Source: Methylocystis sp. L43
Lineage (GTDB): Bacteria; Pseudomonadota; Alphaproteobacteria; Rhizobiales; Beijerinckiaceae
DNA length: 64,000 nucleotides
NCBI RefSeq assembly: GCF_015709525.1
Contig: NZ_JADNRA010000034.1
Location: forward strand, 1-64,000
Reading direction: 5' to 3'
Shown one piece after another: positions 37,019 to 55,030 of the stretch. Both the position numbers and the translations under genes were made by a program. How positions within the stretch are numbered: the stretch's first letter is position 1; each line of letters opens with the position of its first letter. The notes beneath the pieces were generated by a model. The model made no database searches, was not told the origin of the DNA, and saw nothing but the letters and a program-made list of their open reading frames with translations.

Positions 37019-39649
37019 CTACTCCCAGTTCCAGGCGACCGGCTGGAGCCAGCCGCCAAATTCTGGCCAGGCTTCGTTGCCGGCATAGAAAATGCCCGGC
37101 AGATTCTTGCCCGTGCCATATTCGTACTTCGCCGAGAAGATGAAGGTGCGCTGCGGGAATGGATGGAACAACGCGAACTTGTAGTTGTTCACATTGTCGA
37201 TGCCGGCGTCGAACGACCATCGGTCGCTGTATTTGTAATGCGCGTGCAGATCGACAATGAAGAAGCGATCAGACGAGCCAAAGATGCCGTGCACGAGATC
37301 ATTGTTCGCGAGCGTGCGCCAGATGCGATCCTGCCAGCGCATCGCCACCGTGAACGCCCAGCTGTCATCCGGGCGATAGGTGGCGCCGAAATTCCAACGC
37401 CATTTCGGCACGCCCGGCACGTTCTTGCCCGCGACCGAAAGCGCCCAAGGGAATTCAAAACTTGTGCCGAACGGCGAGGTCGCCGAGGGCGCTGAAGGCT
37501 GCCAGCGACTGAACGAGATGACGCGCGAATTGACGTAAGTGACGCTGCCGAACAGCTGAAGCCCCTTATAGTAGACGTCGTCCTTCTGCCAGGCGAGCTC
37601 TGCGCCGCTGTTACGAATGCGGTCGACGTTGATGTTGGCGTTGGTCTGAAAGACCGACCCGGGCGCAAAAGTGGCGTTGGAGATGATCGCGTCGCGCGCT
37701 TCTTCATCGAAGAGCGACAGCCGCGCCCAGCTGTTCGGACCAAGACTGCGCTGAAAGACGATCTCCTTGGTCAGCGCGGTCTCGGGACGCAGATTGGGGT
37801 TGGGATTGGTGACGAATCCCGTTGCGCCCGGCGTTGCGGTGAGATTGTAGAGTTCGCGCACCGTCGGAAAGCGATTGGCCATGCCGACATTGCCGGTGAT
37901 CGTCCAATATGGATCCGCCTCCCAGCGCAGCGACGCCTTCGGCGACACGCGCGTGGAATAGAGATTGGGCTGGAAAATCGGCAACATGGTCCCAAGCTGC
38001 GCCGAAGAGCCGGTGGCGGCGGCGTTCAGACCGCCGAGGAGCTGATTGTATCCGTCGGAGGCTTGCCAATGCTCGCCGCGAACGCCGAGAGTCAGTTTCA
38101 GGTCGGGCCGCAGGAGAATCGCATCCTGCGCCCAGAGCGCCTGCGTACGCGTCGTGCCGCTGCCGACCGACTGGACGACGCCATACGACGACGCCATGCC
38201 CGCCCCCCAATTCGTCGTGAGCCAGATCGGATTGTTCGAGTGATATTGATCCCCGTGTATGCCGAAGCTGATGTCGTGCATGCCTTCGGGGCCGTCCGGC
38301 CGAAAAATGCCCTTCAGATCGAGAAGCGTCCAATATGTGCCGGTGAAGATCGTGTCGCGACCGGTCTGCGTATAACCTCCGAAGGGATTGATCGCAGTCG
38401 AGGGCACGCCGCTCCAGGCCGAACGCGAGGAGCTGTAGGGGTAGGTGAAATGCGAGGCGGAAAGCTCGAAGTCGAAAACGCCCTGCGTATTTGACTTAAG
38501 CGCCAGGGAGTTGACCAGGATCGTCTCCTGATAGCGTAGATTGGCCGCGCCGAAGCCCTGCAGAGTCGTTGTAGAAAGCGCTGCGGGCCCCGAAGGCGGC
38601 CCAAAAACTTCGTTGCGTCCTCCCGACAGATAGTTCAGCGGCCAGGACACGCGATCGCTGTTGAACACGCCGAGCGTGTAGACGCCGCGGATCGTCGGCG
38701 TGAAGTCGTAAGCGACCTTCACCTTGCCGTTGATGAAATTCTCCTCCGAGATCGATCCCGAGCCGACGATCGACTGCGGCACGCCATAGACGTTCTGGGA
38801 GAAGATCGCGCCTGGATAGGGATAGAAGCGTCCGGCGTTGATGAAAGAAATCGGCTGATTGTTGTTCCAGGCGTAATTCAGCGCGACGAAATAGGACAGA
38901 TCACCGATTTTATCGCCGATGGTCAGCGCCGTCGTTGTCGTCGGCAGGCCGAGCTGAGCGCCCCACCACGCAAAGTCTTGCACAGCCACGGTCTGCTTGG
39001 CGGTGACTTCGAGATGCTCCGGCATGCGCGTGGTGAATTTGATGACGCCGCCGATCGAATTGCCTGGATACTGCGCCGCATAAGGCCCGTAGAGGTAGTC
39101 GACGCGTTCGATCTCTTCCGGCGAAATAAGCCCCCAGCGCGGCTGGCCGTCGGTATGTCCGTTGGAGATAAGCTGGCTGATCAACAGGTCGTCGACATAG
39201 ACCAGAGCGCGCGCGGACGAGAGGCCCCATGTGCGCGTCTGGATCATGCCCTCGTTGCCGCCGCGCAGTTTTCGGATGAACAGGCCCGGCACATATTTGA
39301 GCGCATCCTGGCTGTCGACGATGTTGATCTTCTCTTTGATGTCGCGGCGCGTGACGCTCGCGACCGTGTTGGGCAATTGCCAGCGCTGAACGAAGGCCGG
39401 CTTGCCGTCAGGAAGCGTCGCCGACCAAATTGAGACAGGCACGGGCGCGGGCGCCGGAGCCGGCGCGACATTTGTCGCAGCGCCTGGAACGCCGGTCGTC
39501 GGCCGCCTGACAACGCCGCGACGTTGACCGCCGACGTCGATCGTCGGCAGCGACTGCTGCGCAGCGGCGCGCGTCGCGTAAAGTTCGGAAAACGCAAAGA
39601 TGGCGAGAGCGCCGGCGGAGACGCCGCGCAGGAGAGAGTGACGAGACAT
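37019..39649 (-). CDS. TonB-dependent outer-membrane receptor (second locus, with own energiser)
   Basis: 876 residues from the ATG at 39649, chosen because AAGGAAG precedes it and a signal peptide ending ATRAAA follows (cleavage near residue 30). The mature start QQSLPTIDVGG nearly equals that of the receptor at 4.6-7.0 kb. The plug shows 'DSQDALKYVPGLFIRKLRGG', 'ARALVYVDDLLISQLISNGHTDGQPRWGLISPEEIERVDYLYGPYAAQYPGNSIGGVIKF'. The barrel is long, and the terminal strand '...RTFIFSAKYEY' is followed by a 32-residue Trp-rich tail instead of ending at the aromatic residue. The gene is preceded by a DUF2946-like gene and divergent from another plus exbBD-tonB. The substrate is unknown; copper is the leading inference. 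Confidence 0.88.
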   Translation of the reverse strand: MSRHSLLRGVSAGALAIFAFSELYATRAAAQQSLPTIDVGGQRRGVVRRPTTGVPGAATNVAPAPAPAPVPVSIWSATLPDGKPAFVQRWQLPNTVASVTRRDIKEKINIVDSQDALKYVPGLFIRKLRGGNEGMIQTRTWGLSSARALVYVDDLLISQLISNGHTDGQPRWGLISPEEIERVDYLYGPYAAQYPGNSIGGVIKFTTRMPEHLEVTAKQTVAVQDFAWWGAQLGLPTTTTALTIGDKIGDLSYFVALNYAWNNNQPISFINAGRFYPYPGAIFSQNVYGVPQSIVGSGSISEENFINGKVKVAYDFTPTIRGVYTLGVFNSDRVSWPLNYLSGGRNEVFGPPSGPAALSTTTLQGFGAANLRYQETILVNSLALKSNTQGVFDFELSASHFTYPYSSSRSAWSGVPSTAINPFGGYTQTGRDTIFTGTYWTLLDLKGIFRPDGPEGMHDISFGIHGDQYHSNNPIWLTTNWGAGMASSYGVVQSVGSGTTRTQALWAQDAILLRPDLKLTLGVRGEHWQASDGYNQLLGGLNAAATGSSAQLGTMLPIFQPNLYSTRVSPKASLRWEADPYWTITGNVGMANRFPTVRELYNLTATPGATGFVTNPNPNLRPETALTKEIVFQRSLGPNSWARLSLFDEEARDAIISNATFAPGSVFQTNANINVDRIRNSGAELAWQKDDVYYKGLQLFGSVTYVNSRVISFSRWQPSAPSATSPFGTSFEFPWALSVAGKNVPGVPKWRWNFGATYRPDDSWAFTVAMRWQDRIWRTLANNDLVHGIFGSSDRFFIVDLHAHYKYSDRWSFDAGIDNVNNYKFALFHPFPQRTFIFSAKYEYGTGKNLPGIFYAGNEAWPEFGGWLQPVAWNWE

Positions 39650-39725
39650 GAAATGCTTCCTTCTAGCGCCGGTCAAGGCGGCGCGACTGACCTGAACGGC
39701 TTTCGCCGTCGTAACGTTCGGCAGA

Positions 39726-40124
39726 TCAGACGAAGGAAGGAGGTCCGCGCGGAGGGGCGCTGCGGTTTGGCCGCGACGGGACAAACGCCTGCGCCGGCGG
39801 CGCCCGCGGCGCGAGATTGTGTTCGACGCCCCGGATCGCAAAAACGGCGTCCGAAGGCGGCGGCGCGCTCCAGCCGAGTTGGCAGAGCGCGCAAGAGCAC
39901 CCGTCGCGGTCCGTGTTGTCCAGAGGCGCTTGATCGGAACCGCCCTGCGCCACAGGCGATGTGTTCGCCAGCGAATGGCATTTCGCGATCGGCGCGTTCG
40001 CCGCGTCAACGGATCTCGACGCCATCGCCTCGCAAGGCGATACGAGCCTCGCGACGAGCGCAAGGAGAGCGAGGAGAGCGAGGAGTTGGCGAATGCGCAT
40101 AGGCTCTTGCGAATTCGACGTCAT
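39726..40124 (-). CDS. Small Cys-rich exported protein, DUF2946-like
   Basis: About 132 residues; the start may be the ATG at 40124 or, more likely for the signal peptide, 40100 (MRIRQLLALLALLALVARL). The mature part has 'AKCHSLANT' and 'DGCSCALCQLGW', a Cys/His pattern as in DUF2946 proteins (HxxC ... CxLC). The C terminus is Ala/Pro/Arg-rich. It lies 76 bases before the TonB receptor in the same direction, repeating the order small Cys-rich protein - receptor seen at 4.2-7.0 kb. A metal-handling or periplasmic redox role is inferred only from context. Confidence 0.6.
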   Translation of the reverse strand: MTSNSQEPMRIRQLLALLALLALVARLVSPCEAMASRSVDAANAPIAKCHSLANTSPVAQGGSDQAPLDNTDRDGCSCALCQLGWSAPPPSDAVFAIRGVEHNLAPRAPPAQAFVPSRPNRSAPPRGPPSFV

Positions 40125-40223
40125 TAACTTTAGCGACGCCGTAATCGCACATGAACCGGTAAACCGAGACTTTCCAAGCCTGCGCGCGTTGTCAAAGGTT
40201 AAAAAATCAACTAAGAGACATTT

Positions 40224-40652
40224 ATGTCACAGTTGCGCGCCATGCGTCGGGAATTCCGCGCGGCATTCGCCGTCGCGGCCGCTTGCGCGCTGATGTTCTC
40301 ACTTCTTTTATCGGGCGCGACGCGGCCGGCGCACGCATTCGCGGACCAAGGCGGAATCGCCTGCGATCATGCCGCCTATGTCGCAGGCCTGCACGCAAAC
40401 GCCGCGCAGAAGGGGGGGGCGACGCAGCGCGACGGCTCTCCAACGCATTCTAAGCATAGATGCCCGGACTGTTGCCTCAGCGTCCATGCCGCGCCGGCCG
40501 TTCTCCCAGAACGCGTCGCTTCGGCGTTGCGGACCCCCGCAGAGCGCCCTTCTGAAATTCGGCATTGCGGCGTCGCCACGCAGCCGCCCGAGAGTTTCGC
40601 CGCGAACGGCGCGAATGGCGCGCGCGCTCCACCCTCAATTCATCTTACCTGA
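40224..40652 (+). CDS. Small Cys/His-rich exported protein, DUF2946-like (divergent copy)
   Basis: 142 residues. The signal segment (FAVAAACALMFSLLLSGATRPAHA) is followed by 'GGIACDHAAYVAGLH', and 'HSKHRCPDCCLSVHAA', a dense Cys/His cluster. This is the third such protein in the window and the second in this locus, divergent from the other copy (gap about 100 bases, which should contain both promoters). It stands ahead of exbB in the same direction, 146 bases away. Binding of a metal by the HxxCPDCC motif is plausible but not shown. Confidence 0.6.
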   Translation: MSQLRAMRREFRAAFAVAAACALMFSLLLSGATRPAHAFADQGGIACDHAAYVAGLHANAAQKGGATQRDGSPTHSKHRCPDCCLSVHAAPAVLPERVASALRTPAERPSEIRHCGVATQPPESFAANGANGARAPPSIHLT

Positions 40653-40798
40653 ATTGCGTTAGACTCCGGGCCGCGCCGCGCAGGAGTCTGATTGCGGGCT
40701 TTCGCGGCCTCTCGTCTCGCTAAGATATAATAAAACAAAGGCTGACGCTTCGCCTGCGCGATCGCCGCAAGCGCGTCCCAATGAACGAGTGAGTGAAA

Positions 40799-41443
40799 AT
40801 GGATTACAACACGCTTTCCCCTCTCGCCATGTTTCTCAACGCCGGTCCTGTCGGAAAGGCCGTCATGGCGCTGCTGCTGCTCGCGTCGATCTGGACGTGG
40901 GTGCTCATCGTCGAAGGCGTGGTGGCCGTCACCCGCATCACCAAATCCGCGCGTTCGGCGCGCCAGGGCGGAGACGTTGGCGTTCTCGCGCCGGTCGCCG
41001 AAGCGGGCCGCGAAGCCTTTGCGCTCGATCTGCCGGATGAAACAATCGGCGACAAGCGCGCCCGCATCGCCGACCATATGAGCCGCGCGGCGCGCGAGTT
41101 TTTGACCAAGGCGGAGGGCGGCCTGCCCAATCTCGCCGTCATCTCGTCGGTCGCGCCCTTCGTCGGCCTTTTCGGCACGGTGTGGGGCATCATGACGAGC
41201 TTCGCCGGCATCGCTCAGTCGCAGGACACGAGCCTTGCGGTCGTCGCGCCGGGCATCGCTGAAGCGCTTGCGGCCACCGCCTACGGACTTGCCGCCGCTA
41301 TCCCTGCCTCGGTCGGCTACAACCGCATCGGCGCCGCCTTCGCGCGCGTCGGCCAGCAGGTCGCGCACTACATTGAAGACGAGGCGCTGCTGATGTGCAG
41401 CGGCCATCAGACGCGCGCGCGTCGTGAGCGGGAGGCTGCGTAA
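40799..41443 (+). CDS. exbB: ExbB/TolQ-family proton channel protein
   Basis: About 214 residues (a GTG start at 40793 would add two). Three membrane segments and the conserved block 'GGLPNLAVISSVAPFVGLFGTVWGIMTSFAGIAQSQDTSLAVVAPGIAEALAATAYGLAAAIPASVGYNRIG' identify the MotA/TolQ/ExbB family. It forms the inner-membrane motor with ExbD that powers TonB. The stop overlaps the exbD start (TAATG). The following gene is a tonB-like gene, which supports ExbB rather than TolQ. Confidence 0.93.
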   Translation: MDYNTLSPLAMFLNAGPVGKAVMALLLLASIWTWVLIVEGVVAVTRITKSARSARQGGDVGVLAPVAEAGREAFALDLPDETIGDKRARIADHMSRAAREFLTKAEGGLPNLAVISSVAPFVGLFGTVWGIMTSFAGIAQSQDTSLAVVAPGIAEALAATAYGLAAAIPASVGYNRIGAAFARVGQQVAHYIEDEALLMCSGHQTRARREREAA

Positions 41444-41970
41444 TGGGAATGCCCTCACGCCAGCGCCAGAGCGCAACCGAAGGCCTTTATCAGCCGCTCG
41501 CCGATATCAATGTGACGCCGCTCGTCGACGTCATGCTCGTGCTGCTGATCATTTTCATGATCACGGCGCCTTTGCTCGCCAAGGGCGTCAAGGTGAATCT
41601 GCCGCAGGCGAGCGCCGCGATGCCGATCAACCAAAAAGACCCCATCGTCGTGACGGTGGGCAAGGAGGGCAAGATCGCGCTTGGCGCGGACGAGCTCTCA
41701 GCGGAGGCGCTCATCGACGGCATCAAGGTGATGATGGGCGACGACCAATCGCGCGTCGTTCATATCCGCGGCGACACGGAAGCTGTTTATGGCGAGGTGG
41801 TCGCGGTGATGGATAAGCTTGCGACGAACGGCATCACCCATATTGCGATCATGACCAACTCGCGCAGCAAGACCGGCGCAGGCGTCAAAGCCGCGCCCGG
41901 CCGCGCCGCGCCTGCCGCGGGCGCTCTGCCCGCGCAAGCTCCGGCGGCGCCCGCGGGAGCGCTGAAATGA
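41443..41970 (+). CDS. exbD: ExbD/TolR-family protein
   Basis: 175 residues, longer than usual because of an Ala/Pro-rich C-terminal tail (about residues 145-175). A single membrane helix carries the essential aspartate D29 ('DINVTPLVDVMLVLLIIFMITAPLL'). The periplasmic domain contains 'VHIRGDTEAVYGEVVAVMDKLATNGITHIAIMTN'. It overlaps exbB by one base and tonB by four (ATGA), so the three are tightly coupled. Confidence 0.93.
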   Translation: MGMPSRQRQSATEGLYQPLADINVTPLVDVMLVLLIIFMITAPLLAKGVKVNLPQASAAMPINQKDPIVVTVGKEGKIALGADELSAEALIDGIKVMMGDDQSRVVHIRGDTEAVYGEVVAVMDKLATNGITHIAIMTNSRSKTGAGVKAAPGRAAPAAGALPAQAPAAPAGALK

Positions 41971-42686
41971 CCGATTTCGCGCTGAGTCCGCAAGACATGG
42001 CGCGAGAGGGCGACCACCACCCGCCTTCGGGTCCGGAGCCGGTCAAGCCCTCCTGGCTGCGCTCGGTGACGACCGTCCTCGTCATCGCGGCGCATGTCAT
42101 GGTCTTCGGCATACTTGCCTATTCGGCGAAGCCGACGGCGGTATCGCTCGACTCTGTCAGCATGGACCTCGTGCCGGAAGGCGACTTCTTCGAGCAGGAG
42201 GAAGTCGCCGAGGCCGACGACACGCCGCCGCCCGAAGCGGTCGAGGAGCCCGACATCGCGCTTCCGCCGCCGGTGGTGATGGCGCCAGACGCCGTGCCTC
42301 TGCCCGCCAAGAAGGAAGATGTCGACAAGGTCAAGAAGAAGGTCGAGCAGCAACAGGTCCAGCGCGCGCAGCAACGCCAGGAGGCGCAGGCGCGTCGACG
42401 CTACGGCGCGCCCGAGGGACAAGCCGGGAATTCAGGCGCATCGCAGGCGACGTGTCTTGCCCATATCGCCGCAGCGCTTCGTCGCCATACGCCAGGCAAT
42501 ACCAGCCTTGGTCCCGGCAGCGCGAGCGTGACGTTCCACGTCAATGCGGGCGGCGGTCTGTCGGGCATCTCGGCTTCGGGGTCGACTCCGGCGCATGCGG
42601 CGCTCGCGCGGCGGATCGTGTCCTCCGCACGCGGACCCGGCATGTGCAGCTCGGCCTTCGTGAGCCAGGCTTTCGCCTTCCATTGA
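41967..42686 (+). CDS. tonB: TonB-like energy transducer
   Basis: 239 residues. A cytoplasmic N terminus, a membrane anchor at about 31-53 with a histidine (VIAAHVMVF), an acidic/Pro-rich spacer ('DDTPPPEAVEEPDIALPPP'), a charged Lys/Gln/Arg stretch (113-145) and a C-terminal TonB-like domain ('CLAHIAAALRRHTPGNTSLGPGSASVTFHVNAGGGL ... ARRIVSSARGPG'). The domain has two cysteines that could form a disulfide, and it lacks the PPPGG turn found in the two following proteins. It would carry energy from ExbBD to receptors such as the two in this window. Confidence 0.8.
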   Translation: MTDFALSPQDMAREGDHHPPSGPEPVKPSWLRSVTTVLVIAAHVMVFGILAYSAKPTAVSLDSVSMDLVPEGDFFEQEEVAEADDTPPPEAVEEPDIALPPPVVMAPDAVPLPAKKEDVDKVKKKVEQQQVQRAQQRQEAQARRRYGAPEGQAGNSGASQATCLAHIAAALRRHTPGNTSLGPGSASVTFHVNAGGGLSGISASGSTPAHAALARRIVSSARGPGMCSSAFVSQAFAFH

Positions 42687-42747
42687 CGCGAACGGCGGCG
42701 GACGCTCGCGCCCGCCGCCTAAGATCGTTCCGGACATTGGGGGCCTG

Positions 42748-43221
42748 ATGATGCTCGCGCGACTGCTTACCATCGGCGCGGCGCTCGCCGCTTGCGCCGC
42801 GCATGCCGAGGACGCCAAGCCCGCGCCCACGGCGCCGACGCCAGCACGAACCGCAGCGCCAACGCAAACCACAGCGCCGACGCGCGCCGCTGCGCCAAAG
42901 CCCGCCGTGCCTGCGACGACCGGGGGCGTGGCAGCCCCAGCCGCGGCTCCGGCGATGTCGGAGAGCAAGTTCCTCGGCGTGCTCTACACGGCGATCGCTA
43001 AGCAAACCCCTTCGGAAAGTCCTGCCGGCGACGGCGAGGTGACGGCCAGCTTTCACGTCAACGCGCAAGGCAAGATCGACAAGGTGACGATCGACAAGAC
43101 GACAAGCCCAGCGCTCGCCGAGACGGTGAAGAAGATCCTGTCGAGCGTCGAAGCGCCCCCGCCGCCGGGCGGATCGATGGATGTGGGACAAACGTTCAAG
43201 TTCCGCGCAACGCCGAAATGA
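42748..43221 (+). CDS. Secreted protein with TonB-C-like domain, no membrane anchor
   Basis: 157 residues. A signal peptide ending in AAHA (about residue 20) is followed by a low-complexity Pro/Ala/Thr spacer (about 22-68), then a domain 'FLGVLYTAIAKQTPSESPAGDGEVTASFHVNAQGKIDKVTIDKTTSPALAETVKKILSSVEAPPPPGGSMDVGQTFKFRA', which follows the TonB C-terminal fold pattern (helix, two strands with FHVN..G, helix, PPP turn, last strand). The AxA cleavage motif suggests release into the periplasm rather than anchoring. It stands 61 bases after the tonB gene. Such a protein cannot pull directly through ExbBD; a role as linker, competitor or receptor-binding factor is possible. Confidence 0.65.
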   Translation: MMLARLLTIGAALAACAAHAEDAKPAPTAPTPARTAAPTQTTAPTRAAAPKPAVPATTGGVAAPAAAPAMSESKFLGVLYTAIAKQTPSESPAGDGEVTASFHVNAQGKIDKVTIDKTTSPALAETVKKILSSVEAPPPPGGSMDVGQTFKFRATPK

Positions 43222-43309
43222 GTCGATCGCGCCGTTCAAAACTCTCGGTCCGTGGCTGAATTGAATCCATGCGCAAGAGGCCCGCGCATGTTTATCGAAG
43301 GAGAAGAAA

Positions 43310-43822
43310 ATGCGGCATACTTCTCGACTGACATTGAGTCTTTCTGCATTGGCGTTCATTTGCGCGCTTGGCGCGAGCGGACCGGCGCGCGCGCTCGATG
43401 AGGCGCAAAAGCCCAAGGCCGAAGACAGCGCCGAACCGAAGCGCGAAGACAGCAAGGATATGAAATCCGAGGAAAAGACCGAAAAGCGCGAGGAGAAGAC
43501 CGACGTCGGGCGCGAACAGAAACCGAAGGCCGCGCGGGACGAGAAGGCCGCCGATAAAAAGAAACATGCCGACAACAGCGCCTATCTGCGCAAGCTCGGT
43601 CAGCTCATCCGGGCGCGCTCGCCGGGCACGACAAGTCTCGGCGAAGGAAGCGCCGTCGTTCGCTTTCGTCTTGGCGCTGCAGGCGCGCCCAATAGCGTCG
43701 CCGTCGTTTCAGCGTCGACGCCCCGTCACGGGCAATTGGCGCGCTCCATCGTCTCGGGCCTGCGGGCGCCGCCGCCGCCCGGCGGCTCCTATGACGGCGT
43801 GCAGAGTTTCAGATTTCACTAG
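43310..43822 (+). CDS. Secreted protein with TonB-C-like domain and charged linker
   Basis: 170 residues. A signal peptide ends near GPARA. A highly charged Lys/Glu/Asp linker of about 60 residues follows (AQKPKAEDSAEPKREDSKD...), like the spacer of TonB. The C-terminal domain 'YLRKLGQLIRARSPGTTSLGEGSAVVRFRLGAAGAPNSVAVVSASTPRHGQLARSIVSGLRAPPPPGGSYDGVQSFRFH' aligns with the tonB gene product and with the preceding secreted protein. The three therefore look like tandem duplicates. It is followed 61 bases later by a beta-propeller gene. Confidence 0.65.
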   Translation: MRHTSRLTLSLSALAFICALGASGPARALDEAQKPKAEDSAEPKREDSKDMKSEEKTEKREEKTDVGREQKPKAARDEKAADKKKHADNSAYLRKLGQLIRARSPGTTSLGEGSAVVRFRLGAAGAPNSVAVVSASTPRHGQLARSIVSGLRAPPPPGGSYDGVQSFRFH

Positions 43823-43883
43823 AGAGACGCCCTTGCGCCTGCCTCGAAAAGCGTCCGCCTTGGGCCGCAAACAGGAGAGAAGA

Positions 43884-45176
43884 ATGAAGCGCATCGCCTT
43901 TGCCCTGCTCGCCGTTTGCGTCCCCGCTACGCTGACCGCGCAAGAAGCGCCGCGAAGTTCCGCAGACGCTCCTAAGGACGCGGCGACGCCGACTCAGTCA
44001 GCGCCGCCGGCCGCGATGAATCACCATCCCGCCGCCGCCTGCGCCGAGGCGAAGGTTGACTGCGCGGCGACCGCCGTTCCCGCCTTTGCGAAGGACGGAC
44101 GGCTGTGGGTCGCCTTTTCAGTCGGCAAGAGCCTTTACGCGGCCGCCTCTTCGGACAATGGCGCGACGTTCTCCGCGCCGACCGCGATCGCCACGGTCGG
44201 CGACGGAATGATCGACGCGCATGGCGACGCGCGCCCGAAAATCGTCGCGCTCAAAGACGGGACGCTGCTCGCGAGCTATACGACGCGGCCCGACAAGCAG
44301 ATGATCGGCACGATCTTCACCGCTCGCTCGACCGACGGCGGCAAGACGTTCTCGACGCCGCAGGCGCTTCTGGCTGAGGGCGGCCAGCGCTTCGACAGCA
44401 TCGTCGTCAATCGCAAGGGGCGCATCTACGCCGGTTGGCTCGACAAGACGCATGCGCTCAAAGCCAAGGCGGAAGGCAAGGAGTTTCTCGGCAGCGGCGT
44501 CGCCTTCGCCTATTCGGACGATGGCGGCAAGACCTTCAAAGGCAAGTCGATCCTGATCGATCACGCCTGCGAATGCTGCCGCATGTCAGGCGCGCTCGAC
44601 AAGGACGGAACGCCGGTCTTCGCCTGGCGACAGGTGCTAGATGGCAATGTTCGCGACCATATGGTCGCCAAGCTTTCCGCGGACGCCGCGCAAGCGACGG
44701 CGACGCGCGTGTCCGACGACGATTGGGCGATCAATAGCTGCCCGCATCACGGACCATCGATCGCGATCGACGCCGCCGGCGATTGGCATGTGGTCTGGTT
44801 CACCAAGGGCAAGAAGCGCCAGGGGCTCTATTACGCGCGCAGTCTCGACGCGGGCAAAAGCTTCTCGGAGCCGGAGAAATTCGGCGACGACGCGCGCGCC
44901 GCCGGACATCCGACGCTGGTCGCGGCCAAGGGCCGCCTGTATCGCGTCTGGAAGGAATTCGACGGCGCGACGACGACGATCGCCATGCAAATGTCGCGCG
45001 ACAACGGCAAGAGCTGGAGCGCGCCGCGCGTCGTGGCGCAAACGCTGGACGCCTCCGACCATCCGGAACTCATCGCCCATAATGGCGCGGCGTATCTATC
45101 GTGGTTGACGCATAAGGAAGGCTATCGCCTGACGCCGCTGCCGCGGGATGAAAAAAGCGCGGCGGCGCCGCAGTGA
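43884..45176 (+). CDS. Secreted BNR/sialidase-like beta-propeller with Cys/His cluster
   Basis: 430 residues from the ATG at 43884 (AGGAGAGAAG precedes it), with a signal peptide (IAFALLAVCVPATLTAQ). Repeated Asp-box motifs SxDxGxTF occur at about 89-96, 149-156, 211-218, 320-327 and once more as SRDNGKSW, giving a sialidase-like propeller. Unusual for a plain sialidase are the clusters H227-x-C-x-C-C (HACECC, 227-232) and C286-P-H-H (SCPHHGP, 285-291), plus C53/C60 near the N terminus. These could bind a metal, for instance copper, in a locus of TonB/metal-uptake genes. Sialidase activity is not supported by context. It runs directly into a thioredoxin-like gene. Confidence 0.7.
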   Translation: MKRIAFALLAVCVPATLTAQEAPRSSADAPKDAATPTQSAPPAAMNHHPAAACAEAKVDCAATAVPAFAKDGRLWVAFSVGKSLYAAASSDNGATFSAPTAIATVGDGMIDAHGDARPKIVALKDGTLLASYTTRPDKQMIGTIFTARSTDGGKTFSTPQALLAEGGQRFDSIVVNRKGRIYAGWLDKTHALKAKAEGKEFLGSGVAFAYSDDGGKTFKGKSILIDHACECCRMSGALDKDGTPVFAWRQVLDGNVRDHMVAKLSADAAQATATRVSDDDWAINSCPHHGPSIAIDAAGDWHVVWFTKGKKRQGLYYARSLDAGKSFSEPEKFGDDARAAGHPTLVAAKGRLYRVWKEFDGATTTIAMQMSRDNGKSWSAPRVVAQTLDASDHPELIAHNGAAYLSWLTHKEGYRLTPLPRDEKSAAAPQ

Positions 45177-45275
45177 CGCCAATTCGGATGGGCGCTGCCT
45201 TGTCATTCGCGACGCGCGCGCCGCGCGTGACTGGTAATCCAGAAACGATCAACGGCGCCAGCTTGATCGCTCTCG

Positions 45276-45307
45276 ATTCCCGGTCGGGCCTGCGGCCTGC
45301 CGGGAAT
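45276..45307. repeat. Palindromic repeat ATTCCCGG...CCGGGAAT
   Basis: A near-perfect 32-base inverted repeat (arms ATTCCCGGTCGGGCC and GGCCTGCCGGGAAT, centre TGC) between the propeller and the thioredoxin gene. The form resembles REP-like intergenic elements of alphaproteobacteria. It could act as an RNA hairpin that separates the two transcripts. Confidence 0.5.
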
Positions 45308-45343
45308 GACAAGAACCATAATAGTTCAGTGGGACTTCGCCGA

Positions 45344-45823
45344 ATGCGCCTCATGTCTTTCGCCCTCGTCTTTGCGCTTCTTGCAGGAGGAGGCGCCTTC
45401 GCGATGGACTTCAAGCCCTACGGCCGCGGCGGCTTCAGCCAATTGACCAAGGCCCATGCCGGCAGGCCGCTCATCGTGCATTTCTGGTCGGTGACCTGTC
45501 CGCCCTGCCTCGTGGAATTGCCGCAATGGGCGAAGATCGCCGCCGAGAAAAAGGGCTTCGACGTCGTCTTCGTCAACACCGACGGCGACGATGACCGCGC
45601 CCGCGCGCAGGCGCGCATCGAGAAGGTCGGGCTTTCGAGCGCGGATCATTACGGCTTCGCCGACGACTTTGTCGAAAAGCTTTATTTTGAAGCGGACAGC
45701 GCCTGGCGCGGAGAATTGCCCTTTACGGCGCTCGTCGCCCCTGACGGCGGCGTCGTGACGGTGACGGGCGCGGTCGACGATCCGCTCATCGTCGAATGGC
45801 TGGAGAAGCGCGTAGCCAAGTGA
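45344..45823 (+). CDS. TlpA-like periplasmic thioredoxin
   Basis: 159 residues from the ATG at 45344, which starts a signal peptide (MSFALVFALLAGGGAFA). The redox motif is C52-P-P-C55 in 'LIVHFWSVTCPPCLVELPQWAKIA', and the thioredoxin-fold cis-proline region is 'ELPFTALVAPDGGVV'. Periplasmic CPPC/CPxC thioredoxins reduce cysteines in secreted proteins such as cytochromes or copper-binding proteins. Its neighbours contain several Cys-rich secreted proteins, which makes them attractive partners. The gene is convergent with the HIG1-like gene, with a 7-base perfect stem (GGCCGCT/AGCGGCC, 45827-45844) between them. Confidence 0.82.
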   Translation: MRLMSFALVFALLAGGGAFAMDFKPYGRGGFSQLTKAHAGRPLIVHFWSVTCPPCLVELPQWAKIAAEKKGFDVVFVNTDGDDDRARAQARIEKVGLSSADHYGFADDFVEKLYFEADSAWRGELPFTALVAPDGGVVTVTGAVDDPLIVEWLEKRVAK

Positions 45824-53068: not shown

Positions 53069-53842
53069 TTACGCGCCCGTCAGCAGTTCGACGCCTTCCT
53101 TGCCGATGACGCGATGAATGTTCAGCAAGAGCTGGACGACAACGCCAAACACGCCGAGCGCCATCCAGCCGAAGAACACGAAGCCCCAATGCAGCGGCGC
53201 AACGAACAGTTCTTCCATGAACCAGAACGTGTGGCCCCACTCATTCAGGCCGACGTTCGGGATGATCATGAAGGGTCCGATCGAGACGATCAGATAGGCC
53301 ACCGAATAGCCCTTCGAGAAGTAGGGGATTCGCGTCTTCGCATGGAAGAAGCAGCCGATCGCCAGAATCGAATAGATCGGGTAGCTCATGTAGAACTCGA
53401 TGATATGCGACGGCGTGAAGTCCGTGTCGCGAATCACCGTCATGTGCCAAGTGCCGTCCTGCTCGGTGAAGAACGACGCGCCCCAATAGATCGCCGCCGC
53501 ATAGACCACGAGCCACGCGGCATTATCCACGATGGCCTTCATTTCCTGCCGCGGCGTGACGGTCGACATGTCGCGAACGCGCGTCTTCCAGAGCCAGCCG
53601 GCGAGGCCGACGCCCGAGATGAGTTCAAGCGGAATTTCGGTCCACAAAATGCTCATCCAGTAGGTCTGGAACTCAGGCGCGAATGAATCGAGCCCGGCCC
53701 GCCAGCCGTAAATCTGCTCGTAGATGCGCACGACGAGATAGAAGCCGTTGAGCACCGCAAGCCCGATCCACATCCCCTTCAATTCAACGATCGGCTCGGC
53801 GCGATCAATCGCGCCTGCTGCCGATTGCGTGGTTATGCTCAT
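53069..53842 (-). CDS. pmoC: Particulate methane monooxygenase subunit C (orphan copy)
   Basis: 257 residues from the ATG at 53842, preceded by AAGGAGAG; this matches the usual PmoC length. It has about six membrane helices. The copper-site residues seen in PmoC structures are conserved by spacing: D129-x3-H133-x12-H146 (D156/H160/H173 in Methylococcus numbering) and N200-x3-H204-x13-H218 (N227/H231/H245). PmoC carries copper-binding sites of pMMO in the intracytoplasmic membrane. No pmoA or pmoB is next to it; the downstream gene is a possible PmoD-like protein. Such single pmoC copies occur beside pmoCAB operons in other Methylocystis-type genomes. It could also belong to an amoC/pxmC-like family, but length and motifs fit PmoC. 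Confidence 0.95.
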   Translation of the reverse strand: MSITTQSAAGAIDRAEPIVELKGMWIGLAVLNGFYLVVRIYEQIYGWRAGLDSFAPEFQTYWMSILWTEIPLELISGVGLAGWLWKTRVRDMSTVTPRQEMKAIVDNAAWLVVYAAAIYWGASFFTEQDGTWHMTVIRDTDFTPSHIIEFYMSYPIYSILAIGCFFHAKTRIPYFSKGYSVAYLIVSIGPFMIIPNVGLNEWGHTFWFMEELFVAPLHWGFVFFGWMALGVFGVVVQLLLNIHRVIGKEGVELLTGA

Positions 53843-54055
53843 TTGTCTCTCCTTCAGTTCGACCGAAAAATGACGATAATTTCTCGGCGGCCTATAGGAT
53901 TGCGCGCAGAGCGGCTCTCTGCAGCGCGCTGGATTAGACATTGGTCGGGCTATATCGGACAGCGACAGCGCTGGTTCACAGGGAGGCTCCGATCTGGGCG
54001 CAAGGCGGGGCGTTTTGCAGTGATGTTGCGCTCGAGCGTTTAAGTGATGCGCCGA

Positions 54056-55030
54056 TTATTTTTGGCGCGCTTGGACCCATCTCCGGTAGGCGCCTGGCGT
54101 CATGCCTGAATATCGAGAGAACGCGCGACGAAAACTGGCTTCGTCAGCATAGCCAGCTCCCGCCGCCAACCGCTTCACGGTATGCGCCGTCGTTTCGAGA
54201 AGGGTTCTCGCGGCTTCGAAACGAATGCGTTCGATGAAGCGCTTCGGCGTCTCGCCTGATGCGCGCTGGAGATAGCGGTGCAACGTTCGAACCGAAGTGC
54301 CGAGCGCACGCGCGAGGCCTAGCACGGTCAACGGAGAGTCGCCCGCCTGCCGAATAATGTGTTCAGCCTTCAATAGAAACGGGTCAGACGCAGCCAAATG
54401 ACCAAGTGGAATGTAGTTGAATTGCGTTGACGGGACAGTGTCGACGACCGTGAAGTCGGCGGCGACCTTGGCGGCGGAAGCGCCATAAAGCGAACGTATC
54501 ACATGAAGACAAAGATCTATCCACGACAGAGGGCCTCCCGCCGTGACGACTCGACTGTCCTCGATCAGTGAAGCGCCCCACAGAGCGTCGGCGCGTGGAT
54601 ACCGATCTCTCAATTCATCGTGTCGCCACCAGGTTGTCGTGCAGCGTCGACCATCGAGGAGGCCCGCTTCGCCAAGCAAAAATACGCCGCTGCATGAGCC
54701 GCATACCAGTGCGCCGAGCGCATGTTGGCGCCGCAACCATGCGGCCGCAGCGTCGATCGACGCTGTGCCGAGGAAGCGATCACCGTCGTCACAAAGGTAG
54801 CCAGGAACAATGACGGCGCTCGCTGGGATCGCTGTAATGCTGCTGTCCACTTCCAGTCGGCGACCGCTACTGTCCTGGACAGGCTGTCCATCAAAACTTG
54901 CGGTGGAGACGCTGATCGGCTCGCGATTTTCTTCCTTGGAAATCGTAAGCCAACTTAACTTCAACATGTCCACGGCGCCGATCAAACCGGCGCCTAGGCA
55001 GCCGTCGTAACCGAGGACGATAACTTCCAT
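54056..55030 (-). CDS. GlxA-type AraC-family regulator with DJ-1/PfpI-like domain
   Basis: 324 residues. Residues 1 to about 185 form a DJ-1/PfpI-like domain with a nucleophile-elbow-like cysteine ('ALVCGSCSGVFLLGEAGLLDGRRCTTTWW'). Residues about 215-320 form the AraC DNA-binding domain with two helix-turn-helix motifs ('LARALGTSVRTLHRYLQRASGETPKRFIERIRFEAARTLLE' and 'RLAAGAGYADEASFRRAFSRYSGMTPGAYRRWV'). Such regulators often control catabolic genes in response to small metabolites. It follows the antibiotic-biosynthesis-monooxygenase-type gene by 47 bases and may share its transcript. The region toward pmoC (53843-54055) contains no other gene. Confidence 0.9.
   Translation of the reverse strand: MEVIVLGYDGCLGAGLIGAVDMLKLSWLTISKEENREPISVSTASFDGQPVQDSSGRRLEVDSSITAIPASAVIVPGYLCDDGDRFLGTASIDAAAAWLRRQHALGALVCGSCSGVFLLGEAGLLDGRRCTTTWWRHDELRDRYPRADALWGASLIEDSRVVTAGGPLSWIDLCLHVIRSLYGASAAKVAADFTVVDTVPSTQFNYIPLGHLAASDPFLLKAEHIIRQAGDSPLTVLGLARALGTSVRTLHRYLQRASGETPKRFIERIRFEAARTLLETTAHTVKRLAAGAGYADEASFRRAFSRYSGMTPGAYRRWVQARQK

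What the first reader, a model, noticed from the sequence alone, without database searches (positions are those of the whole stretch)
37019..45823. A self-contained TonB metal-uptake locus with extra soluble TonB-like parts and a Cys/His propeller
In one stretch: TonB receptor, two small Cys-rich exported proteins around a divergent start, exbB-exbD-tonB with overlapping stops and starts, two secreted TonB-C-like proteins, a beta-propeller with CxCC and CPHH motifs, and a CPPC thioredoxin. Apart from the known DUF2946-receptor link, I do not know this complete set as a described system. The presence of pmoC and copper-uptake-like genes in the same window makes copper a plausible substrate; lanthanide uptake is possible because xoxGJ is also present.
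Basis: partly seen in the sequence, partly recalled or inferred. Interest (0 to 1): 0.72.

Follow-up and report, generated by a model that had tools for sequence, protein, structure and literature searches.

The report
Copper uptake locus with twin leaders
A methane-eating bacterium carries a compact set of genes that very probably imports copper, apparently switched by two tiny copper-sensing genes that sit back to back, with an undescribed metal-binding-looking propeller protein whose relatives often lie beside copper genes in other bacteria.

Summary
The window lies in a Methylocystis genome. Both 'small Cys-rich exported proteins' are DUF2946-type leader genes (CruR/CutF, copper-sensing): a Cys pair plus a C-terminal R[AG]PP arrest motif. 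One heads the TonB-dependent receptor (TBDT); the other, divergent, heads exbB-exbD-tonB-(soluble TonB-C proteins)-propeller-thioredoxin. Receptor, both leaders, motor and propeller are together in 16 of 19 Methylocystaceae loci with enough flank. Elsewhere the Cys/His propeller sits beside a TBDT (45 of 50 loci) and a thioredoxin (43), with DUF2946 (13), PCuAC copper chaperone (9) or Csp1-like copper storage protein (6). Copper is by far the best substrate; no evidence for lanthanides was found, nor specifically sought. Two further points. (1) The receptor's Shine-Dalgarno is predicted to pair with the leader's own arrest-site codons, so a ribosome stalled in low copper would switch the receptor on (SecM-like; published CruR output is Rho termination). 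Codon choice beats synonymous recodings in 16 of 30 leader-receptor pairs, 0 of 20 leader-exbB pairs. (2) Receptor genes were exchanged at this locus while the rest stayed, as expected if they take up different copper complexes. Nothing was tested experimentally.

The parts
37019..39649 (-). TonB-dependent receptor (876 aa); one (A) of two receptor types found at this locus
   Evidence: Pfam Plug + barrel; start MSRHSLLRGVS conserved; types and exchange
39656..39663 (-). Shine-Dalgarno of the receptor (GAAGGAAG), 3' arm of the predicted hairpin
   Evidence: fold z -3.06, 0 of 200 shuffles fold as well; P(pairing with leader tail) 0.89
39732..39739 (-). 5' arm of that hairpin: CTTCCTTC inside the leader's last codons, directly behind the RGPP arrest motif
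   Evidence: the consensus fold of 17 rows pairs the same two segments, four pairs in a register shifted by four
39726..40100 (-). DUF2946 (CruR-like) leader gene of the receptor; CxxC, and RGPP three residues before the end
   Evidence: Pfam 24.0 bits; alignment; Cys-motif spacing 43-46 in Methylocystaceae loci; dN/dS 0.33-0.55
40224..40652 (+). second, divergent DUF2946-like leader gene heading the exbB operon; CPDCC, and NGARAPP near the end
   Evidence: 19.5 bits, below cut-off 23.7; NGARAPP (HGARAPP in L026) in 8 of 8 rows; dN/dS 0.24-0.38
40653..40792 (+). 140-nt spacer with a hairpin just behind the leader's stop, with compensating changes in close relatives (by eye); no sign that it hides the exbB Shine-Dalgarno
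   Evidence: (fold not better than shuffles, z 1.04)
40793..41443 (+). exbB (GTG start; an ATG follows at 40799)
   Evidence: MotA_ExbB 1.3e-29
41443..41970 (+). exbD
   Evidence: ExbD 1.6e-29; one of three ExbD matches in the genome
41967..42686 (+). tonB: membrane-anchored (by eye), with a divergent TonB C-terminal domain
   Evidence: no Pfam or NCBIfam hit; its C-terminal domain is 39% identical over 84 columns to 43310-43822, E 2e-12
42748..43221 (+). soluble TonB-C protein 1 (signal peptide by eye, Pro/Ala/Thr linker, TonB C-terminal domain)
   Evidence: TonB_2 22.5 bits, cut-off 22; tonB_Cterm 24.5, cut-off 27.1
43310..43822 (+). soluble TonB-C protein 2 (signal peptide by eye, charged linker, TonB C-terminal domain)
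   Evidence: TonB_C only 13.8 bits, cut-off 24.6; homology to TonB and to protein 1, E 9e-14
43884..45176 (+). exported (by eye) BNR-type propeller with CECC and CPHH motifs
   Evidence: BNR_2; AlphaFold2 pLDDT 87.1; C229, C231, C232, C286, H302 in 60 of 60 rows and H288 in 59 of 60
45344..45823 (+). TlpA-like periplasmic thioredoxin, CPPC
   Evidence: Redoxin 1.3e-7; TlpA model 29.9 bits, below its cut-off 230

Best explanation
This is a copper-starvation uptake system. A TonB-dependent receptor brings copper, most likely as a small complex, across the outer membrane; a dedicated ExbB-ExbD-TonB motor powers it; the periplasmic propeller takes the metal with its CxCC and CPH residues, kept reduced by the thioredoxin, and passes it on. 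Each operon is headed by a DUF2946-type leader. In low copper the leading ribosome stalls at R[AG]PP. On the receptor side this stall covers the codons that otherwise pair with the receptor's Shine-Dalgarno, and so lets the receptor be translated. Copper bound by the leader's Cys pair relieves the stall, the hairpin forms and the receptor is shut off. Shown by computation: gene set, its conservation, copper-linked neighbours, conserved residues, conserved leader motifs, predicted hairpin and codon bias, receptor exchange. Inferred: metal binding, transport, stalling, copper response, role of the thioredoxin. The soluble TonB-C proteins are tentatively adaptors or competitors at TonB boxes (weak).
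For: Receptor, both leaders, motor and propeller together in 16 of 19 Methylocystaceae loci. Outside that family, of 50 loci: TBDT 45, thioredoxin 43, exbB 24, DUF2946 13, PCuAC 9 (all nine also with DUF2946), Csp1-like 6; representatives checked by Pfam (PCuAC 1.6e-43, DUF1775 2.2e-46, DUF2946 2e-10) and by PDB sequence (copper storage protein 1, 5fjd, 6.8e-21). Leader motifs and spacing fit CruR (PMC9426467, first part and passages). Hairpin z -3.06. Pairing of leader tail and receptor Shine-Dalgarno is matched by 10 of 200 or fewer synonymous recodings in 16 of 30 leader-TBDT pairs (window 2 of 200), its probability is 0.4 or more in 23 of 30; leader-exbB 0 of 20 and 2 of 20. Receptor dS to L042 is 1.10, the seven other genes scored lie at 0.17-0.32.
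Against: No expression, uptake or metal-binding data. Three of 19 Methylocystaceae loci (L057, L059, L066) keep the exbB operon and propeller without the receptor. 31 of the 50 outside loci show no labelled copper marker. Switch: 7 of 30 pairs have pairing probability under 0.4 (L051, L052, L053, L070, L072, L083, L093); close relatives are not independent; fold z is -2 or lower in only 7 of 24 loci; of 16 other DUF2946 loci scored 4 passed (5 of 100 or fewer), and of the four with a receptor only one. A cruder duplex control did not favour the window's own pair (65 of 230 other ORF tails as good). Covariation is small (-0.66 kcal/mol) and the consensus stem is in a shifted register. In B. pertussis the output is Rho termination, and here the two leader stretches rank first and second of nine by share of C>G windows (0.76, 0.68; receptor 0.65), which leaves Rho possible. 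The plus leader is below Pfam's cut-off and its Cys-RAPP spacing (48-50) is longer than CruR's 45.
Confidence: 0.7

Rival explanations
1. Same copper system, but the leaders act only as in Bordetella: copper relieves the stall and Rho ends transcription before the receptor and before exbB. The receptor hairpin is then incidental or secondary.
For: Same motifs and similar spacing as CruR. The exbB side has a long spacer and no Shine-Dalgarno pairing. The leader stretches have the largest share of C>G windows of the nine stretches scanned.
Against: Receptor-side pairing depends on codon choice beyond the peptide in 16 of 30 pairs, and a similar layout with other letters appears in Bradyrhizobium-type loci. 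By maximum C/G the leaders do not stand out.
Confidence: 0.3
2. The receptor takes up a foreign or shared copper chelator (chalkophore), such as another organism's methanobactin, and the two receptor types differ in ligand. (Compatible with the best explanation.)
For: Two receptor lineages exchanged at one locus: window against L042 59% identity and dS 1.10 in the receptor, propeller 97%; trees conflict, AU p 2.9e-5 and 2.0e-5. The genome holds a methanobactin gene (MbnB) on the same contig, near another receptor.
Against: No ligand test. The groups for the AU test were named after the identities had been seen. Surface exchange can also follow phage or toxin pressure.
Confidence: 0.5
3. The substrate is another metal (lanthanide, iron, zinc or nickel).
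For: The host is a methylotroph; a family-3 solute-binding protein gene of the kind called xoxJ (name recalled) lies in the window. DUF2946 relatives with only His-rich motifs lie next to HupE/UreJ genes, implicated in Ni/Co (passage of PMC9973294).
Against: The leaders here carry Cys pairs; the metal-linked neighbours identified are copper genes. No dedicated search for other metals' genes was run.
Confidence: 0.06
4. The propeller is a sialidase-like enzyme and the locus a glycan system.
For: Best structural neighbours are sialidases, glycoside hydrolases and the PLL3 lectin; five Asp boxes.
Against: No FRIP motif found; Pfam and PDB sequence hits are to repeats or weak; copper neighbours; invariant Cys/His.
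Confidence: 0.03

Closest known systems
cruR-bfrG(crtA)-bp2921 operon of Bordetella pertussis (PMC9426467, first part of the text and passages; PMC12914433, passages)
   Same: DUF2946 leader with CXXC and RAPP heading a TonB-dependent copper receptor; ExbBD- and TonB-coding genes are reported in some crtA operons
   Different: Here two divergent leaders, propeller plus thioredoxin instead of the PepSY_TM protein, soluble TonB-C proteins, and a predicted Shine-Dalgarno switch; there Rho termination
cutFOG of Rhodobacter capsulatus (PMC9973294, passages)
   Same: DUF2946 leader; a stem-loop that shields the next gene's Shine-Dalgarno and is unfolded through translation of the leader's end
   Different: There copper delays translation and switches a multicopper oxidase on; here low copper should stall and switch an importer on
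SecM-secA arrest switch (described in PMC10987492, passages)
   Same: C-terminal arrest motif; stalled ribosome frees a sequestered Shine-Dalgarno
   Different: The signal is secretion, not copper
OprC-type copper receptor, TIGR01778
   Same: TonB-dependent copper import is the shared role proposed
   Different: 21.2 bits against a cut-off of 472.45
pcuABCDE of Bradyrhizobium (recalled; the paper is not held)
   Same: Copper-starvation operon with a TonB-dependent receptor and PCuAC (recalled)
   Different: Its relation to the Bradyrhizobium loci with propeller found here was not tested

Membership tests
DUF2946 / CruR leader (minus ORF) | Pfam DUF2946 score over cut-off | tested here: met
   24.0 bits, cut-off 23.7; 23.6, or 23.9 with its neighbours in the frame, in the genome search
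DUF2946 / CruR leader (minus ORF) | CXXC and C-terminal R[AG]PP with about 45 residues between | tested here: met
   RGPP three residues before the end; spacing 43-46 in the Methylocystaceae loci, 44 counted by hand in the window; R[AG]PP in 7 of 8 aligned rows, RASP in L028
DUF2946 / CruR leader (plus ORF) | Pfam DUF2946 score over cut-off | tested here: not met
   19.5 bits against 23.7, though over positions 2-117 of 117: filed as DUF2946-like only
DUF2946 / CruR leader (plus ORF) | Cys pair and RAPP with CruR spacing | tested here: inconclusive
   GARAPP in 8 of 8 rows, but spacing 48-50 against 45 in CruR
DUF2946 / CruR leader | copper-relieved stalling and Rho termination | not testable with these tools
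   needs experiment; C>G scan only
SecM-type arrest switch | Shine-Dalgarno of the next gene sequestered by RNA reaching into the leader | tested here: met
   as a prediction, receptor side of the window; not met on the exbB side (0 of 20)
SecM-type arrest switch | translation arrest | not testable with these tools
   needs toeprinting
OprC-type receptor (TIGR01778) | model score over cut-off | tested here: not met
   21.2 bits against 472.45
CrtA receptor family | sequence-network membership and ligand-site residues | not tested
   no CrtA sequence in hand; the PDB sequence search at E 0.01 found only PhuR and PirA
ExbB-ExbD-TonB motor | MotA_ExbB and ExbD domains, TonB | tested here: met
   ExbB and ExbD by Pfam, TonB only through its homology to the TonB-C proteins; NCBIfam scores lean to TolQ/TolR, all below cut-off
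Sialidase | FRIP motif | tested here: not met
   only YRV found by a loose pattern
TlpA thioredoxin | NCBIfam TlpA model over cut-off | tested here: not met
   29.9 bits against 230: TlpA-like only

The most novel reading that the evidence does not exclude
A copper-released arrest peptide works as a SecM-like translational switch in alphaproteobacteria: the leader's own arrest-site codons are the anti-Shine-Dalgarno of the copper receptor. With its divergent twin it sets receptor and motor together, and it serves a new widespread copper-relay module of receptor, Cys/His propeller and thioredoxin whose receptors are exchanged between strains according to the copper complex they import.
Probability: 0.4. 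Interest if true: 0.78.

Novelty: new variant of a known kind. Interest (0 to 1): 0.63.

Why it matters
How bacteria bring copper through the outer membrane, and who receives it in the periplasm, is poorly known. Methanotrophs need much copper for methane monooxygenase. This locus gives a propeller family with invariant Cys/His residues that keeps company with TonB-dependent receptors in alpha-, beta- and gammaproteobacteria, and a leader-peptide switch whose parts can each be tested by point changes. It would link the copper-sensing leaders to the SecM type of control and point to copper-complex piracy or sharing among methanotrophs.

Tried and rejected
Lanthanide substrate: given low odds because the metal-linked neighbours identified are copper genes; no dedicated lanthanide model was run, and the neighbour clusters were not all named.

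Sialidase function: rejected (no FRIP motif; repeat-level or weak hits).

A first count of '16 of 17' loci used a 9 kb cut that left out L057 and L066; on checking, both and L059 lack the receptor, and the count is 16 of 19.

AlphaFold2 model of the receptor from 9 rows failed (pLDDT 27.9) and was not used. Distances between the propeller's Cys and His could not be measured, as I had no coordinates; that the two motifs face each other is inferred from both lying in loops between blades.

Duplex control with other ORF tails and a 24-nt Shine-Dalgarno region: the window did poorly (65 of 230 as good), while L063, L086, L101 and L116 had none as good; I judged it blunt because GC-rich spacer letters take part, and replaced it by the synonymous-codon control.

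Sigma-70 promoter scan found nothing. The C>G scan for Rho sites is ambiguous.

Pfam did not recognise the Csp1-like proteins; the PDB sequence search did. PDB sequence searches with TonB and TonB-C protein 2 gave nothing useful.

First propeller alignment A1 held row L011 on the wrong strand; replaced by A3.

Literature: searches listed no paper that I could recognise as naming a propeller of this kind in copper uptake, or a hidden Shine-Dalgarno behind a CruR-type leader other than the CutF case. I saw listings and abstract starts, plus the passages cited. Words for the propeller (BNR, sialidase, propeller) do not occur in the main texts of PMC9426467 and PMC9973294. Most subscription papers are not held.


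Full report
WHAT IS THERE. The genome is a Methylocystis, judged by 97% propeller identity to Methylocystis sp. H62, and has two PF02461 (PmoA-type) genes. The minus-strand receptor is preceded by a 124-residue ORF, the plus-strand exbB by a 142-residue ORF. The first scores 24.0 bits against DUF2946 (cut-off 23.7), the second 19.5 (below cut-off).

THE LEADERS. Aligned with relatives, the plus ORF ends in (N/H)GARAPP plus a few residues in 8 of 8 rows and has CP(D)CC. The minus ORF has a Cys pair and ends in R[AG]PP in 7 of 8 rows (RASP in L028). In CruR the motif is RAPP three residues before the end, 45 residues after CXXC (PMC9426467, passages). Here the minus leaders have 43-46 and the plus leaders 48-50 in the Methylocystaceae loci. 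The pattern (Cys pair, 30-65 residues, R[AG][PS]P near the end) fitted 53 of 5,707 ORFs of 80-260 aa in 76 loci; in 16 of the Methylocystaceae loci both leaders are among them. dN/dS against six relatives is 0.33-0.55 (minus) and 0.24-0.38 (plus): constrained as coding sequence, but far looser than exbB at 0.02-0.08.

CONSERVATION. Same-family genomes: 13 of 149 hold a propeller relative, the window's included. Of ten other genomes with a closer relative whose neighbourhoods I fetched, seven have receptor, exbB, exbD, TonB-like genes and propeller around two leaders (minus leader of L029 seen by eye); four of these seven also show the thioredoxin. The other three (G007, G126, G092) have propeller and thioredoxin without exbBD, G092 on a contig that starts just before the propeller. 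In 385 genomes drawn from the class, 5 have a propeller at E 1e-40 or better, the window's included. The scan of genome contigs gave 179 stretches, 79 encoding a relative, 76 loci. Of 26 Methylocystaceae-type loci, 19 hold at least 7.3 kb upstream of the propeller; 16 of these have receptor, both leaders, exbB, exbD, TonB-like genes and propeller (thioredoxin in 13). L057, L059 and L066 have the exbB operon and its leader but no receptor that tblastn could find. The number of soluble TonB-C genes varies from one to about four.

OUTSIDE THE FAMILY. Of 50 loci (Bradyrhizobium, Afipia, Rhodopseudomonas, Reyranella, Gallionella, Methylomonas koyamae and others): TBDT 45, thioredoxin 43, exbB 24, exbD 21, TonB-like 26, DUF2946 13, PCuAC 9, Csp1-like 6, YcnI 1; 19 of 50 have at least one copper marker and 31 have none labelled, some of them on short contigs. 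Labels rest on small home-made profiles. Representatives were checked: DUF2946 2e-10, PCuAC 1.6e-43, DUF1775 2.2e-46, DsbD-like, TonB_C, and one Csp1-like protein at 6.8e-21 to the solved copper storage protein 1, 5fjd. In Bradyrhizobium-type loci the usual order is DUF2946-TBDT-propeller-thioredoxin-PCuAC; in Gallionella-type loci Csp-TBDT-propeller-thioredoxin-tonB-exbB-exbD (Csp behind the thioredoxin in L094).

THE PROPELLER. AlphaFold2 on 60 rows gives a confident propeller (pLDDT 87.1, pTM 0.84), nearest to the PLL3 lectin, sialidases and glycoside hydrolases (query TM 0.48-0.60 in the ten best). It has five Asp boxes but no FRIP motif. C229, C231, C232, C286 and H302 are in 60 of 60 rows, H288 in 59, H259 in 53. 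C229-C232 and C286-H288 lie in loops between successive blades, so one shared site is plausible (inference).

THE SHINE-DALGARNO SWITCH. The 106 bases from the minus leader's end to the receptor start fold at -40.6 kcal/mol, z -3.06, none of 200 shuffles as stable (z -2.40 for a slightly different stretch). The stem joins CTTCCTTC, inside the codons behind RGPP, to GAAGGAAG, the receptor's Shine-Dalgarno. Many relatives keep this with other letters, and several Bradyrhizobium-type loci pair the stop-codon region with the Shine-Dalgarno (UUUCCUGAC with GUCAGGAA); total fold z is -2 or lower in 7 of 24 loci. With the peptide held fixed and codons redrawn by usage, pairing is matched by 10 of 200 or fewer recodings in 16 of 30 leader-receptor pairs (window 2 of 200) and in 0 of 20 leader-exbB pairs; the pairing probability is 0.4 or more in 23 of 30 against 2 of 20. 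Seven of 30 lie under 0.4 (one of them, L052, still beats its recodings), and related loci are not independent. Of 32 further DUF2946 loci given to the script 16 passed its filters; 4 of the 16 reached 5 of 100 or fewer, one of them another receptor of this genome (L001), while three other receptor-type loci did not. A consensus fold of 17 rows pairs the same two segments, with four pairs in a register shifted by four and small covariation. A ribosome stalled at the prolines would cover the 5' arm (inference from the usual footprint, recalled). On the exbB side a hairpin just behind the leader's stop shows compensating changes among nine relatives, by eye; its role is unknown. A Rho output remains possible on either side: the leader stretches have the largest share of C>G windows of nine stretches scanned.

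RECEPTOR EXCHANGE. The window's receptor is 92-94% identical to those of L050, L051, L065 and L113, but 58-59% to those of L042, L044 and L047, whose propellers are the window's nearest. Window against L042: dS 1.10 in the receptor, 0.17-0.32 in the seven other genes scored. Trees of 16 rows conflict, AU p 2.9e-5 and 2.0e-5 (groups named after seeing identities). This fits ligand-specific receptors; phage pressure is an alternative.

HOW IT LIKELY WORKS, AND KNOWN KIN. See Best explanation. It is a TonB-dependent copper system with CruR-type leaders (known kind), but with a different periplasmic set, a twin leader and a different predicted output. ExbBD-TonB genes near crtA have been reported (PMC12914433, passage), so a dedicated motor alone is not new.

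CHANGES ON CHECKING. The locus count was mended from 16 of 17 to 16 of 19, the consensus-stem statement, the C>G statement and the lanthanide statement were weakened; the novel-case odds were lowered from 0.42 to 0.40 for the last three reasons together with the receptor-type misses.

Noticed in passing
G000:C30:32378-33692 (outside the window; L041 7379-8723, L154-L163): A DUF2946-type leader (GFCCVLH ... SPRAPPREG, 22.4 bits, just under the Pfam cut-off) heads an orphan pmoC about 196 nt downstream. 30 of 39 genomes of the genus have a match to the leader; in the 10 best loci, all that were fetched, pmoC follows on the same strand. A copper-sensing arrest leader before a methane monooxygenase gene could bear on the copper switch of methanotrophs.
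   Followed up: partly
G000:C33:82598-90278, beyond the window end: A methanobactin gene (MbnB 455.9 bits) with another TBDT and a DUF2946 leader before a gene that looks like mbnP (recalled, not tested), some 44 kb from the locus.
   Followed up: partly
window 53072-53941 (-): Orphan pmoC (AmoC 3.4e-103) with an AraC/DJ-1-type regulator gene at 54059-55030 on the same strand.
   Followed up: no
L034 (G146:C1:1017675-1022393), L035, L037: Distant propeller relatives: three near one another in G146, a genome with PF02461 genes but no close propeller, and single ones directly beside a TBDT in G114 and G017.
   Followed up: no
L040 7356-7682 and 8044-8448: A DUF2946 ORF and, by eye, a second similar ORF behind it in this genome, both ending in RAPP-like motifs.
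   Followed up: no
L073, L078, L085, L092, L095, L097: DsbD-like membrane genes in the neighbourhood of Gallionella-type propeller operons, in L078 and L095 next to the Csp1-like gene.
   Followed up: no
L057, L059, L066: Three Methylocystaceae loci keep the leader, exbB operon, TonB-C genes, propeller and thioredoxin without any receptor found nearby: the motor and propeller can do without a linked receptor gene.
   Followed up: partly
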